64,000 nucleotides of DNA from Pleomorphomonas sp. PLEO. Lineage in GTDB: Bacteria > Pseudomonadota > Alphaproteobacteria > Rhizobiales > Pleomorphomonadaceae. Both the position numbers and the translations under genes were made by a program. Location of the stretch: NCBI RefSeq assembly GCF_041320595.1, contig NZ_CP166625.1, positions 248,001 to 312,000 on the forward strand, in the 5' to 3' direction. Shown in pieces: positions 52,379-57,674 of this stretch; the first letter of the stretch is position 1, and each line of letters opens with the position of its first letter. The notes under the pieces were generated by a model, which was not told the DNA's origin, did not search any database, and saw only the letters and a program-made list of their open reading frames with translations.

Positions 52379-53227
52379 TCACATCCTTCCGCGCTGGGTG
52401 GGGTCGAGGATGTCACGCAACGCGTCGCCGACCAGGTTGAAGGAGAGAGCCGTCAGCAGGATGGCGATGCCGGGAAACACCACCAGCCAGGGTGCCGAAG
52501 TGAAGAAGCTCTGGCTTTCGAAGATGATGTTGCCCCAGGAGGGCTCCGGTGGCTGCACGCCGACGCCGAGGAAGGAGAGTGTCGCCTCGAGCAACACCGT
52601 GGTGGCGATGCCGAGCGTGCCCCAGACGATGGCCGTCGGCATCAAGTGCGGCAGGATATGGCGGAAGATGATGCGACCGTGCCCCGCCCCCAGCGAGCGT
52701 TCGGCCAGGATGAAGTCACGCTCCACGAGGCCACGGGTCTCCGTGTAGACGATGCGCGCCACCTGCACCCAGTTGACCATTGCAATCACCATGGCGACGA
52801 TCCAAAGGCTGGGGTGGAACAGCGCCGCCAGCACGATGGCGAGCAACAACGCCGGGAAAGCCATCATCAGATCGGTGAAGCGCATCAGCGCATTGCCCAT
52901 GGGGCCGCGTAGGTAGCCGGCCAGCATGCCGACGCCAAGGCCAATGACGACGGCGGTGCCGTTGGCGACAACGCCGATGATCAGCGACGTGCGGGCGCCG
53001 AACAGGAGTCGGGTCAGAAGATCGCGGCCCAGCGTGTCGGTGCCCAGCAGGAAGGCGGCATTGGGGCCGATCGGCGCGCCTTCGAGCGTGAGGCCGTCGA
53101 ACAACTGGTCATCAGGCGCATAAGGCGCGATCAGAGGCGCCACCAAAGCGCCGATCACGACCAGCAGCACCACAACAACGCCGAAGACGGCTGTGGGACG
53201 GCGCAGGAATTCGCGGGCGATGCGCAT
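52379..53227 (-). CDS. Peptide/amide ABC transporter permease (DppC-type)
   Basis: A 282-residue permease with the DppC marks GTDTLGRDLLTRLLFGARTS and the EAA loop ERDFILAERSLGAGHGRII, ending NLVGDALRDILDPTQRG. Its ATG overlaps the stop of the ANTAR gene by one base (TGATG), so the two should be translationally coupled. Confidence 0.93.
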   Translation of the reverse strand: MRIAREFLRRPTAVFGVVVVLLVVIGALVAPLIAPYAPDDQLFDGLTLEGAPIGPNAAFLLGTDTLGRDLLTRLLFGARTSLIIGVVANGTAVVIGLGVGMLAGYLRGPMGNALMRFTDLMMAFPALLLAIVLAALFHPSLWIVAMVIAMVNWVQVARIVYTETRGLVERDFILAERSLGAGHGRIIFRHILPHLMPTAIVWGTLGIATTVLLEATLSFLGVGVQPPEPSWGNIIFESQSFFTSAPWLVVFPGIAILLTALSFNLVGDALRDILDPTQRGRM

Positions 53228-53772
53228 CAGCCGGCCTCCGACAGGGGAATGACGCCGGCCAGCATCTCGGCTGCGGTCTGTTCGATGGTGATGCGGCGCT
53301 TCATGGCCGCCCGGCGCAGGACGGCGTAGGCAGCCTCCTCGTCACAGCGCACGGCCATCTCGATGGCCCGAACGGCGGCATGCACCAGAGGCCGCATGCG
53401 AAGCCGCTCTTCGAGGCGTTCGATGCGGACAGCCACCTCGGTAGCGCGAGTATGGGCGGTGACGGCAAGCACCAGTGCCGGGTAAACCGCCGCCGGCACC
53501 ACCGGTTTGGGCAGGATAGCGAGCGCGCCTTCCGAGATCGCCCAGGCCACGCGCCCTGGCGCTTCTGACTGCAGCAGCGCCACCAGCGGGACTGGTGCCG
53601 GCTCGCCCGACCAAGGTAGCAGCCCCGACCAGCCCTGATCGGCATCGACCAGCACGAACTCGGCCGGCGTCTCCTCAAGGTCTAGCGAAGCCCACTGCAC
53701 ATGAGCGTCGAGACCAAGCAGCCCGAGCTGACGGACGAGACGCTGCGTGTTCTCGTCGGGACGGTGGAGGAT
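53227..53772 (-). pseudogene. amiR: AmiR-like ANTAR antiterminator, 3' part, interrupted by IS110
   Basis: AmiR-type proteins bind nascent RNA through a C-terminal ANTAR domain and prevent termination. That domain is intact here (RPLVHAAVRAIEMAVRCDEEAAYAVLRRAAMKRR). The receiver-like N-terminal half is cut at 53772 by an IS110-family element. Joining 53772 to 54985 restores one frame beginning MTAIPDLVGRRAVILHRPDE. The remaining open frame can restart at GTG 53700 (VQWASLDLEE), which would lack the first 37 residues but keep the ANTAR domain, so partial function is possible. It is the gene between amiC and the transporter. Confidence 0.85.
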
Positions 53773-53801
53773 TGTTCGTCTGCGTTGTCTTAAGATGAAG
53801 G

Positions 53802-53990
53802 CGGCCTCTCCGGCCGGTTGGTTTGACGACCCCGGAGAGGCCGGTGGCAGGCGACCGTGCGGAGGATCGGGTTTTCACCCGTTGTCATCAAGGCTCCCTG
53901 CCATCTTCCATCATTCGCTTGGAGAGTTGATGGGGTCTCTGGGGGCTGACCCTTGCCGATCAGACCCACGCCCGAGAACAATCCGAAGCT
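53802..53990 (+). ncRNA. IS110 bridge RNA with readable target and donor guides
   Basis: Three stem-loops. Stem 1: CGGCCTCTCCGG (53802) with CCGGAGAGGCCG (53832). Target loop: outer stem TGGCAGG (53845) / CCTGCCA (53897), inner hairpin CGGGT-TTTC-ACCCG (53868-53881). GGAGGAT at 53861-53867 equals the left target at 53766-53772, and GTCATC at 53884-53889 is complementary to the right target GATGAC at 54982-54987. Donor loop: AGAGTTGAT (53923-53931) equals the element's right end at 54976-54984, and GAACAATC (53976-53983) is complementary to GATTGTTC at 53770-53777; GGGTCT/AGACCC forms the inner stem. This is the layout of bridge RNAs described for IS110. The ends of the transcript are estimated. 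Confidence 0.85.
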
Positions 53991-54023
53991 CATGGTGGCC
54001 TAACTTGGGAAGGATAGCACATC

Positions 54024-54983
54024 ATGACCTTTTTGCAGAAGGCTCCCGAGATCGTTCTGGGCTTCGATGTCTCCCAGGACACGCTGACGGTCTTCCAAGC
54101 CCTTTCCTCGTCTGCCTGTCCGAAGCCTTGCGTCATCGACAATACCGCCGCCGCCATCCGCCGCTTTCTGAAGAGTCTTGAGCGGATAGACCTTGCGGTC
54201 TGCGAGCCGACCGGTGGCCATGAGCATGTCCTTGTGGCCGAACTGATGGCCGCAGGCATTGCCTGCCACCGGGTGGATGCCTTGAAGGTAAAGGCTTTTA
54301 TCCGCTCCTTCGGCACCCTGGCCAAGACGGACGCTCTCGATGCCGAAGCGCTGGCCCGCTACGGGCAGGATCGCTGGGATCGGCTTTCCCTCTTCCTGCC
54401 GAAAGAGGCCGACCAGAAGATCTTGACCGATCTGGTTGCCCGGCGCGAGGACCTGGTTGCCCTCAAGGTGGCCGAGCAGAACCGGGCAAGAGCGCCGGCC
54501 AGCAAGGTGATCAAGGCGTCCTGTGACGCCATCCTGCGGGCCATCGTCCGCCAGATCAAAGCCATTGAGGCGGAGACGAAGGCGCTGATCGACAGAACCC
54601 CGCAGCTCAAGGCTGCCTTCCGGGAAATGCAGAGCTTGCCCGGTGTCGGGTCGCTGACCGCGATCGCTCTTCTCGCCCACATGCCAGAGCTGGGCAGCCT
54701 GCAGCGAAGGCAGGCGGCCTCGCTGGCCGGCGTGGCCCCACACGCCAATGACAGCGGTCTGTTCAAGGGACACAGGACGATGCGCGGTGGACGCTCTGAG
54801 GTGCGTCGTCTCCTCTTCATGGCAGCCCTGGCCGCAAGCCACGCAAAGGGACCATTACGTGAGGTCTATCAACGCCTTGTTCAAAACGGAAAGAAGCCAA
54901 TCGTCGCCATCGGAGCCCTCATGCGCAAGATCATCGTCATCCTCAATGCAAGACTGAGAGACCTCAATGCCCAACAGAGTTGA
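54024..54983 (+). CDS. IS110-family transposase/bridge recombinase
   Basis: A 319-residue recombinase. The RuvC-like DEDD half has Asp in VLGFDVSQDTL, Glu in AVCEPTGGHEH and the Asp pair in KTDALDAEALA. The Tnp20 half has LPGVGSLTAIALLAHMPEL and the serine region RQAASLAGVAP, followed by RGGRSEVRRLLFMAAL. Full length, no frameshift. The bridge RNA region lies just upstream on the same strand, the arrangement of the IS110 group rather than the IS1111 group. It probably guides excision and insertion with that RNA. Confidence 0.93.
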   Translation: MTFLQKAPEIVLGFDVSQDTLTVFQALSSSACPKPCVIDNTAAAIRRFLKSLERIDLAVCEPTGGHEHVLVAELMAAGIACHRVDALKVKAFIRSFGTLAKTDALDAEALARYGQDRWDRLSLFLPKEADQKILTDLVARREDLVALKVAEQNRARAPASKVIKASCDAILRAIVRQIKAIEAETKALIDRTPQLKAAFREMQSLPGVGSLTAIALLAHMPELGSLQRRQAASLAGVAPHANDSGLFKGHRTMRGGRSEVRRLLFMAALAASHAKGPLREVYQRLVQNGKKPIVAIGALMRKIIVILNARLRDLNAQQS

Positions 54984-54984
54984 T

Positions 54985-55023
54985 GACGGCCCGGCGGCCG
55001 ACGAGGTCGGGGATCGCCGTCAT
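54985..55023 (-). pseudogene. amiR: AmiR-like ANTAR antiterminator, first codons (5' part)
   Basis: The ATG at 55023 overlaps the amiC stop (ATGA). It encodes MTAIPDLVGRRAV before the IS110 junction; translation would continue a few codons into the element (INSVGH) and stop. Together with the 3' part this is the original amiR. Confidence 0.8.
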
Positions 55024-56162
55024 GACACCACCCTCAGGCTGGAACGGCCGCCATCGCGTGAGGCCGTCATGTAGGGATCGGCAGCGATGGCGGGGCGGCT
55101 GGCGATGATGTCGAAGTCGCCGTCGTCGCGGATACGGCCAAGGTGGAACGGCAACGCGGCATGATTGGTGCGCGGATCGATGCGCATCGAGCCGTGCGGT
55201 GTTTCGAACAGGCTGGCATGGATCGCCGAGCGCACCGCCGCCGGCTCGTCGGAGCCGGCAGAGCGGACCGCGTCCATCAGCATGTGGACGGCAACATAGG
55301 CGCCCTCGACGAAGGAAGAGAGCCGGCGGGCTGGTCCGAACGCGGCGGCGGCGCGGGCGCGGAAGCGCTCGTTCTCTGGCGTTGCCAGCGTGCCGAAGTA
55401 GCTTGCCACCGACAGGTGACCGGTGGAGAGACCAAGGCCGATCTCACCGATCTCCGCCTCGGTGAGATCGCAGCTGACCACCGGCCGCACCTCCGGCCGA
55501 AAAGCGGGATCGGCATCGCCGAGCGCCTTGTAGGCACGCAGGAAGGCGTGGCTTGAAGGGCCGATCAGATTGTTGAGGATGAAGTCGGGTCGACGGCTCC
55601 GGATGTCGGCGATCAGCCGGTCGACGTCGGTTTCCTCGATGGGCAGATAGCGCTCGCCCACCACCTCGCCGCCAGCCTCGCGCAGAAGGTCGCGGGCGAT
55701 GCGGTTCATTTCCCAGCCCCAAACGTAGTTGGCGCCGAGAAGATAGACCCGCCGCCCCTGGCGCGGCAGCAGATGCTCGAACAGCGGCATCAAGTGCTGG
55801 TTGGGACAGGTGCCGGTGTAGATGACGTTCTCGTTGGCCTCGAAGCCCTCGTAAGGGCAGATGTACCAGAGCAGACCGTCATGCTTTTCGATAAGCGGGA
55901 TGACTTCCTTGCGGGCGAGCGAAGTGATGGTGCCGATGATATGCCGGCAGCCCGCATCGCGCAGCATGGCACGCGCCTGTTCCAGATAGGCGCGCGGTTC
56001 TCCCTCCGGATCGGCATAGACAGGCTCGAAGGATATCGCGTCGCCGGACTTTTGGGCGACTTCATCAAAGGCAAGAGCCGCCCCGTCACGACAGTCGCGC
56101 CCTATGGCGGCGTAGGGACCGGTACAGGAAAACAGAATCCCGACCTTGACGGTGTCGGCCAT
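55020..56162 (-). CDS. amiC: AmiC/FmdD-like amide sensor protein
   Basis: A 380-residue member of the type I periplasmic-binding fold without a signal peptide (MADTVKVGILFSCTGPYAAIG), so it is cytoplasmic like AmiC. Family blocks: GTITSLARKEVIPLIEKHDG, NVIYTGTCPNQHLMPLFEHLL, GANYVWGWEMNRIARDLL and AAVRSAIHASLFETPHGSMRID. AmiC holds AmiR inactive until an amide binds. The ATG at 56162 has GAGG 6 bp upstream; the next gene, amiR, overlaps its stop by four bases. An intrinsic terminator sits 30 bp before its start. Confidence 0.88.
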   Translation of the reverse strand: MADTVKVGILFSCTGPYAAIGRDCRDGAALAFDEVAQKSGDAISFEPVYADPEGEPRAYLEQARAMLRDAGCRHIIGTITSLARKEVIPLIEKHDGLLWYICPYEGFEANENVIYTGTCPNQHLMPLFEHLLPRQGRRVYLLGANYVWGWEMNRIARDLLREAGGEVVGERYLPIEETDVDRLIADIRSRRPDFILNNLIGPSSHAFLRAYKALGDADPAFRPEVRPVVSCDLTEAEIGEIGLGLSTGHLSVASYFGTLATPENERFRARAAAAFGPARRLSSFVEGAYVAVHMLMDAVRSAGSDEPAAVRSAIHASLFETPHGSMRIDPRTNHAALPFHLGRIRDDGDFDIIASRPAIAADPYMTASRDGGRSSLRVVS

Positions 56163-56717: not shown

Positions 56718-57188
56718 TCATAAGCTCTGGCACCAGATCTTCGCTGCGACAAGCTTTACGGCAGCGAGGTAGTTTTCTGGCCGCTTGTCGTAACGCGTTG
56801 CGATGCCCCGGAACTGTTTGATCCGATTGAAGAACCGCTCCACGAGGTTTCGCTGCCGGTAGACCCAACGCGAGAACGAGAAGGTGCCCTTGCGATTGGT
56901 CTTCGGCGGAATGTTGGCCCAGGCCTTCCGTTCAGCCGCTTTGGCCCGAATGGCATTGCTGTCATACCCCTTGTCGGCCAGTAGGATGTCGCCTTCGCCG
57001 AGGTCATCGGTGAGGGCGTCGGCTTCGGTGCAGTCGGCAACCTGTCCGCCCGTCAGACGGAGGGTGACGGGGCGACCTTCAGCGTCGACGAGCGCGTGGA
57101 TTTTGCTCGTAAGTCCACCGCGGGAACGCCCTACGCAGCCATTCCAGCGATCTTGCAGATCGCCGGAACCTTTGTCTGCTCCGCCCAT
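56718..57188 (-). CDS. IS5-family transposase, second frame
   Basis: The catalytic C-terminal half of a DDE transposase: GGLTSKIHALVDAEGRPV, DILLADKGYDSNAIRAK (second Asp) and the YRQRNLVERFFNRIKQFR block with the catalytic Glu, ending at the left inverted repeat. It is expressed as a fusion with the first frame; the apparent start at 57188 is probably not used. Confidence 0.88.
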   Translation of the reverse strand: MGGADKGSGDLQDRWNGCVGRSRGGLTSKIHALVDAEGRPVTLRLTGGQVADCTEADALTDDLGEGDILLADKGYDSNAIRAKAAERKAWANIPPKTNRKGTFSFSRWVYRQRNLVERFFNRIKQFRGIATRYDKRPENYLAAVKLVAAKIWCQSL

Positions 57189-57535
57189 GCCGCCATCGTA
57201 TCCATCCCCCTTTTTCCCGTGGCGGCGTGCTGGTGAACGCGGACACAGGTCGAGTCGATCATGACGATGTCGCCGTCGTAGGCGGAGGAAACCGCTTCAA
57301 GAAGCCGATCCCAGACGCCGGCCTTCCGCCAGCGAACGAAGCGATTGTAGCAAGTGGTCGGCGGGCCGTAGCGCTCGGGGACTTCCGCCCAAGGCGATCC
57401 TGTCCGGAAGCGCCAAAGGATGCCGTTCATCACACGACGATCATCGACGCGAGGAACGCCACGCGGCTTGTTGGGCAATAACGGCGACAGGATCGACCAT
57501 TCATGGTCGGTGAGTTCGTACCGGCGACGCGTCAT
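57131..57535 (-). CDS. IS5-family transposase, first frame
   Basis: The N-terminal half: MTRRRYELTDHEWSILSPLL, WRFRTGSPWAEVPERYG and the first catalytic Asp in IVMIDSTCVRVHQHAA. A run reading GGGAAAAAGGGGG on the minus strand near 57210 is the likely slip site; a -1 shift there gives KKGDGYDGGMGGADKGSG and joins the second frame. The ATG at 57535 matches family starts. Confidence 0.87.
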   Translation of the reverse strand: MTRRRYELTDHEWSILSPLLPNKPRGVPRVDDRRVMNGILWRFRTGSPWAEVPERYGPPTTCYNRFVRWRKAGVWDRLLEAVSSAYDGDIVMIDSTCVRVHQHAATGKRGMDTMAAWAEQTKVPAICKIAGMAA

Positions 57536-57674
57536 CAAGGCTTCCCCTTTCGGAAGCCTTGAATCATGCGATCCAACAAACGCCAAGCGAATTTATGAGT
57601 TTACGGCCTAAGACTGTCATCGCGCTTCCAATGGCAGTATCGCGCAAAGCGCCCTAGGTGTACATGCTTGGACT

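What the first reader, a model, noticed from the sequence alone, without database searches (positions are those of the whole stretch)
53766..54987. Complete IS110 bridge RNA whose guides match its own insertion site in amiR
Seen directly: in the 250-bp non-coding left end, an internal loop carries GGAGGAT (53861) equal to the left flank (53766-53772), and GTCATC (53884) complementary to the right flank GATGAC (54982). A second loop carries AGAGTTGAT (53923) equal to the element's right end (54976) and GAACAATC (53976) complementary to its left end (53770). All four guides share the GAT junction. Known: IS110 recombinases use such a bispecific bridge RNA. Inference: this is an intact, programmable element that targeted GGAGGAT-GAC in amiR. 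The guide set and GAT core appear to be specific to this element.
Basis: partly seen in the sequence, partly recalled or inferred. Interest (0 to 1): 0.9.

Follow-up and report, generated by a model that had tools for sequence, protein, structure and literature searches.

The report
REP-targeting IS110 element, strayed into amiR
This is a jumping gene of a recently described RNA-guided kind; its guide RNA appears to be aimed at a small repeated palindrome of its host, and the copy in the amiR gene looks like a secondary insertion rather than the intended target.

Summary
Four segments of the 251-nt left end match the two flanks and two ends of the element in the order expected of an IS110 bridge RNA; 0 of 20,000 random bodies reach all four lengths. 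The fold is supported by compensatory changes among 14 aligned RNAs. The recombinase frame is open and homologous to IS621/ISCro4.

The interpretation needs correcting. The genome holds five identical copies. Four sit in a REP-like palindrome, GGTCCYCYGCCTKCGCRGAG|GAT|GACA; only the window copy is in amiR, with a shorter right-hand match. A 94%-identical relative has the amiR site uninterrupted. The guide set is not private: eight same-genus RNAs share donor guides and core, while the most variable 6-column window overlaps the left target guide, which covaries with the flank (24 rows: 120/144 matches, permuted mean 77.6, 0/20,000). Six guide variants are each also a REP stem sequence.

Bridge RNAs, REP targeting by IS110 elements and natural reprogramming are published. 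New member of a known kind; a clean natural guide-target series. Expression and activity untested.

The parts
53773..54984 (+). IS110-group insertion element, 1212 bp counted from the base after the left GAT to the end of the right GAT
   Evidence: five 100% identical copies in the genome, flanks, uninterrupted site in relatives
53770..53772 (+). left junction GAT (core AT by analogy with the CT core of IS621; inference)
54982..54984 (+). right junction GAT; overlaps the recombinase stop codon TGA at 54981-54983
53791..53796 (+). -10-like TAAGAT, 17 bp from a -35-like TTGATT that exists only when right and left ends are joined (54980-54984 plus 53773)
   Evidence: motif match only, weak
53803..53842 (+). 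5' stem-loop of the predicted bridge RNA
53843..53905 (+). target-binding stem-loop
53859..53867 (+). left target guide GCGGAG plus GAT
53882..53889 (+). right target guide TTGTCATC (complement of GATGACAA)
53907..53998 (+). donor-binding stem-loop
53923..53931 (+). left donor guide AGAGTTGAT, equal to the right end 54976-54984
53976..53983 (+). right donor guide GAACAATC, complement of the left end 53770-53777
54024..54983 (+). DEDD/serine recombinase, 319 aa; D15, E61, D103, D106, S244 as counterparts of IS621 D11, E60, D102, D105, S241
   Evidence: IS621 residues from PMC11208158 passages; the printed alignment covers residues 55-306, so D15 was placed by motif
53227..53772 (-). 3' part of amiR (ANTAR domain), cut at codon 14 counted from the ATG at 55021-55023
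54985..55023 (-). first 13 codons of amiR, beyond the element

Best explanation
An IS110-group insertion sequence that works like IS621. Its recombinase and a bridge RNA from its left end join the element's circular junction (AGAGTT-GAT-TGTTC, read by the donor loop) to a target (read by the target loop). The target loop is programmed for GCGGAG-GAT-GACA, the 3' half-stem and tail of a REP-like palindrome of this genus; the copy in amiR is a secondary insertion at a partly matching site. In relatives the left target guide changes to match other stem variants of the same repeat, while donor guides and core stay fixed. Shown here: sequence matches, copies, flanks, uninterrupted site, covariation, fold, homology. 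Inferred: RNA expression, RNA-guided catalysis, circular intermediate, activity today.
For: Four ordered guide matches, 0 of 20,000 random bodies. Five identical copies, four in REP-like palindromes, five of five with GAT and GAC. Guide-flank covariation: 120 of 144 positions in 24 of 25 rows, permuted mean 77.6 sd 6.3, 0 of 20,000; 10 distinct same-genus pairs 52 of 60, permuted mean 35.0, 0 of 20,000. Among 8 same-genus RNAs donor guides and core do not vary and the most variable window overlaps the left target guide. Fold: 8 of 39 pairs with kept double changes; 98.2% of cells paired against 34.9-49.4% when slid, covariation score reached by 0 of 500 shuffles. PF01548 and PF02371; ISCro4 1.8e-26, IS621 3.5e-25. 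Uninterrupted amiR site in L133 and L134. In G013 the guide's stem GCGTAG is the commonest repeat stem, 9 of 37.
Against: No expression or activity data. 24 of 144 guide positions do not match: one each in L002, L003, L005, L045, L060, L046, L047, L122, L124, L118, L130, L126; two each in L044, L052, L128, L129, L117, L116; mismatches at -1 or -2, next to the core, in L044, L052, L128, L129 and L116. In this genome the perfectly matched stem GCGGAG is 2 of 23 repeats found by the pattern, GCAGAG 13 of 23; in G010 the guide's stem is 1 of 27. Ten non-repeat copies of the amiR 10-mer GGAGGATGAC are empty. Rows are related by descent, so permutation counts are not probabilities. In the structure control the number of further pair types was reached by 62 of 500 shuffles, and a structure taken from the consensus exceeds slid versions partly for that reason. 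No Rfam family reached its gathering score.
Confidence: 0.92

Rival explanations
1. amiR is the programmed target, and the REP-like copies are incidental.
For: The amiR site matches 7 nt in a row on the left and 6 on the right including GAT; on the left it equals L002 and L003 in number of matches and has a longer unbroken run next to GAT.
Against: Four of five copies lie in the repeat; two match the left guide 6 of 6, and all four keep GACA where amiR has GACG. Related elements with other guides also sit in the same repeat family.
Confidence: 0.06
2. The protein alone recognises GGATGAC or the palindrome; resemblance between RNA and flanks is descent or chance.
For: GAT-GAC is constant in nearly all rows, so this part carries no covariation signal.
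Against: The variable left bases follow the guide across elements with very similar recombinases, e.g. GCGGAG to GCGTAG at 94% identity; L062 sits in a context without the repeat's left half (judged by eye) but at a 6 of 6 match to its guide; random bodies do not give four matches.
Confidence: 0.03
3. The element is a dead remnant with a decayed bridge RNA.
For: Activity not shown; the relative L060 carries an internal insertion.
Against: Five copies identical over 1217 bases in one genome, open reading frame and catalytic residues present, which suggests recent spread.
Confidence: 0.05

Closest known systems
IS621 (E. coli; IS110 group), bridge RNA and structures 8WT6 etc.
   Same: Recombinase domains and catalytic residues; bridge RNA in a long left end; 5' stem-loop, target loop, donor loop; guide order; promoter-like pair across the joined ends; REP elements named as IS110 targets (PMC11208160: abstract, passages, sections 5, 6 and 12; PMC11208158: passages)
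   Different: Junction GAT (core AT by analogy, where IS621 prefers CT; AT cores were reported to work for IS621, generally less efficiently: passages); a different REP-like repeat; no non-coding bases in the right end, the stop codon overlaps GAT
ISCro4 (structure 9T56)
   Same: Best sequence match among solved structures, 1.8e-26
   Different: Guides and target not compared here
ISRm19 (Sinorhizobium meliloti), ISPpu9, ISPpu10, ISPa11
   Same: IS110-family elements found in REP sequences (ISRm19 4/4, ISPpu9 7/7, ISPpu10 7/7, ISPa11 6/6 in PMC1525189, passages)
   Different: Sequences not compared here; ISPa11 is placed in the IS1111 group by PMC11187229 (passages)
seekRNAs of ISEc21, ISEc11 and relatives
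   Same: RNA-guided site choice and natural reprogramming between relatives (PMC11187229, passages)
   Different: The pair described in the passages (ISEc11/ISXne4, 72% identical) differs widely in its target-detecting region; here several guides follow stem variants of one repeat family

Membership tests
[quoted passage not shown]
   319 aa, both domains above cut-off; IS621/ISCro4 homologue over residues 55-306; D15 (by motif), E61, D103, D106, S244
IS110 family, IS110 group | Long non-coding left end upstream of the gene, short right end | tested here: met
   251 bases 53773-54023 before the start codon; stop codon overlaps the right GAT
IS110 family, IS110 group | Structured RNA with two internal loops pairing to target and donor, guides for the bottom strand on the 5' side and for the top strand on the 3' side | tested here: met
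   (computed structure and pairing only)
IS110 family, IS110 group | Clean insertion around a short shared core | tested here: met
   uninterrupted site L133 reads GGAGGAT-GAC; GAT at both junctions of the window copy
IS110 family, IS110 group | Circular intermediate with a promoter formed across the joined ends | tested here: inconclusive
   TTGATT-17-TAAGAT on joining; 859 of 20,000 shuffled left ends also give a -10-like 4 of 6 at spacing 16-18; no circle data
IS110 family, IS110 group | RNA bound by recombinase and directing recombination | not testable with these tools
   needs biochemistry
IS1111 group | Long non-coding right end carrying the RNA | tested here: not met
   RNA is in the left end and there is no non-coding right end
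IS1111 group | Sub-terminal inverted repeats of 7-17 bp | not tested
   not searched for
REP/BIME-like repeats (the target) | Short, numerous palindromes, often in neighbouring opposite-strand pairs | tested here: met
   23 in own genome, up to 327 in a relative, 0 for the reversed pattern in all 14 genomes; opposite-strand neighbours visible in the listings, which are capped
REP/BIME-like repeats (the target) | Mostly extragenic position; a transposase that spreads them | not tested
   neither was examined

The most novel reading that the evidence does not exclude
The left target guide is under selection to follow stem variants of a host REP-like repeat: elements retarget themselves by one-base changes or a one-base length change while keeping the donor side fixed, giving a natural guide-evolution series. 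The boldest form, guide rewriting by copying from the repeat itself, is not excluded but has no direct support.
Probability: 0.45. Interest if true: 0.5.

Novelty: new member of a known kind. Interest (0 to 1): 0.36.

Why it matters
It gives a natural data set for bridge-RNA specificity: one genome with five identical elements (two left flanks fully matched, two with one mismatch in the repeat, one in a gene), and a genus in which six guide variants go with matching repeat variants. It suggests which guide positions tolerate mismatches in nature, and how an RNA-guided element may limit damage by aiming at host repeats yet sometimes break a gene.

Tried and rejected
Rfam: three matches, all below gathering score and to unrelated families (53000-56000 only). 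The idea that amiR is the programmed site was rejected on flank comparison. That all five copies lie on the + strand was dropped as weak (5 of 5). No match in the plasmid collection (blastn; records of this genome may be left out there). Short right-end-only copies in G012 and G013 were suspected to be non-autonomous elements; the exact left-end 8-mer GATTGTTC was absent from the six loci read, so they stay unexplained. Occupancy of repeats in this genome (GCGGAG 2 occupied, 4 empty; GCAGAG 2 and 13; GCGAG/GCGGG 0 and 8) is suggestive but small and was not tested. More distant or partial elements L010 and L099 were looked at but not put in the guide table.

Full report
Observation. In 20,000 first-order Markov bodies the four lengths are reached 1367, 1376, 29 and 41 times singly and never together. 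The two target matches alone would be weak; the donor matches carry most of the weight.

The element. The open reading frame 54024-54983 has PF01548 and PF02371 above their cut-offs and matches the solved ISCro4 and IS621 recombinases (1.8e-26 and 3.5e-25, over residues 59-306 and 55-306). The catalytic residues given for IS621 in PMC11208158 (passages) have counterparts D15, E61, D103, D106 and S244 (D15 by motif, outside the printed alignment). The stop codon TGA overlaps the right GAT, so there is no non-coding right end.

Copies. The genome has five copies, 100% identical over 1217 bases, all on the + strand. Their left flanks show that L001-L004 lie in a palindrome of the form GAGGTCCYCYGCCTKCGCRGAG|GAT, and L005, the window copy, in amiR. 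All five have GAC after the right GAT; four continue GACA, amiR GACG. Against the left target guide GCGGAG, L001 and L004 match 6 of 6, L002 and L003 5 of 6 (GCAGAG), and amiR 5 of 6 (GTGGAG) with a shorter right match. amiR is thus lowest in total, but it ties with L002 and L003 on the left and has a longer unbroken run beside GAT (4 bases against 3); that it is secondary rests mostly on where the other copies and the relatives lie. The amiR gene is cut at codon 14. Nine same-genus relatives examined at this place are all uninterrupted; L133 (94% identical over 543 bases) and L134 carry exactly GGTGGAGGAT-GAC, and L135-L141 differ at the site or nearby.

The repeat. The pattern GGTCCN{0,6}GCCTKCGCN{0,6}GATGAC finds 23 places in this genome and matches in 11 of 14 genomes of the genus, with 0 matches for the reversed control in each (its list of places is capped, its counts are whole). 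Stem variants in this genome: GCAGAG 13, GCGAG 4, GCGGG 4, GCGGAG 2 of 23. In G013 the guide's stem GCGTAG is commonest, 9 of 37; in G010 the guide's stem GCGAG is 1 of 27. The 10-mer GRAGGATGAC occurs at 29 places in this genome (reversed control 4). Fourteen are GGAGGATGAC: four in REP-like GCGGAG repeats, two of which the longer pattern also found, and ten elsewhere and empty, although they carry the same 10-mer as the amiR site.

Guide-target covariation. Related elements were found in the genus and order. Nine of 397 order genomes and 2 of 385 class genomes hold the exact donor-loop pattern, own genome included both times, reversed control 0. Twenty-five copies gave guides, five of them the identical copies of this genome; L006-L009 are named twins of copies already in the table and were not counted again. 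L131 was dropped because its flank is cut, and seven rows lack a right flank. In the remaining 24 rows 120 of 144 left positions match, against a permuted mean of 77.6 (sd 6.3; 0 of 20,000). For 17 distinct pairs: 83 of 102 against 52.9 (0 of 20,000). For 10 distinct pairs within the genus: 52 of 60 against 35.0 (0 of 20,000). Guide then flank: GCGTAG/GCGTAG (L043), GCGCAG/GCGCAG (L057, L064), GCGGG/GCGGG (L045), GCAAG/GCAAG (L060), GCGAG/GCGAG (L046). L045 and L060 are two copies in one genome, each matching its own site. Against: L044 and L052 mismatch at -2 and -6, L128 and L129 at -1 and -5, L116 at -2 and -3, L117 at -5 and -6, L047, L118, L126 and L130 at -5, L122 and L124 at -6. L062 lies in a context that by eye lacks the repeat's left half but fits its guide 6 of 6, a second insertion outside the repeat. 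Rows are related by descent, so the permutation counts are a guide and not a probability.

Where the RNA varies. Among eight same-genus RNAs the most variable of 163 six-column windows is columns 16-21 (0.286 against a mean of 0.055), which overlaps the left target guide; the exact guide columns 17-22 average 0.19, and a stretch near the 3' end (columns 159-165) reaches 0.20. Donor guides and core do not vary. In the more distant RNAs the left donor guide is still identical and the right donor guide differs only in its first bases. This contradicts the statement that guide set and junction are private to this element.

Fold. The single sequence folds at -106.4 kcal/mol, z -3.37. In 14 aligned RNAs the consensus has 39 pairs, 8 with kept double changes; 98.2% of cells pair, against 34.9-49.4% when slid by 1-3 columns. 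No shuffle of 500 reaches the covariation score or the number of double-changed pairs, but 62 of 500 reach the number of further pair types. Because the structure was taken from the same consensus, the slide control favours it somewhat. Seven of the eight double-changed pairs lie in the outer stems of the two loops (helices 1 and 4), one in helix 7; the inner donor stem (helix 5) has no double change.

Joined ends. Joining right to left end creates TTGATT, 17 bp, TAAGAT. In 9 of 10 copies examined the best -10-like hexamer lies at 17 or 18 bp with 3 or 4 of 6 matches; the tenth (L131) gives its best at 15. For this element 859 of 20,000 shuffled left ends do as well, so this is weak evidence, in line with the junction promoter described for IS621 (PMC11208160 section 5).

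Known or new. REP targeting by IS110-family elements is published (PMC1525189 passages; PMC11208160 section 5), as are bridge RNAs with guide-target covariation over thousands of elements (PMC11208160 section 6) and natural reprogramming (PMC11187229 passages). Searches listed no paper whose title or abstract start concerns this element or IS110 elements of Pleomorphomonas; the listings were capped, and the library lacks many subscription journals. The genus name rests on named twins of the relatives (contig lengths and positions: P. oryzae, P. carboxyditropha) and is an inference for the window. The element is a new member of a known kind.

Noticed in passing
own genome G000, 1.688-2.056 Mb (L068-L090): All 23 pattern-defined REP-like repeats lie within 0.37 Mb of a 5.48 Mb chromosome; in relatives the listed ones also appear bunched on a few contigs (capped list, and 47). 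Cause unknown.
   Followed up: partly
L048, L055, L058, L063, L065 (G012) and L059 (G013): Right-end-only copies of 39-52 bp with two kinds of shared sequence upstream, next to REP-like repeats and without the left-end 8-mer nearby: possibly remnants amplified together with repeat units.
   Followed up: partly
L060 positions 1550-1675 (G008): A relative of the element carries 126 extra bases inside the 5' stem-loop of its bridge RNA.
   Followed up: no
L062 (G016): A related element inserted outside the repeat (by eye) at a 6 of 6 match to its guide: a second example of a site outside the repeat.
   Followed up: partly
window 56718-57586, - strand: Two adjoining reading frames that look by eye like an IS5-type transposase in two parts; not searched.
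   Followed up: no
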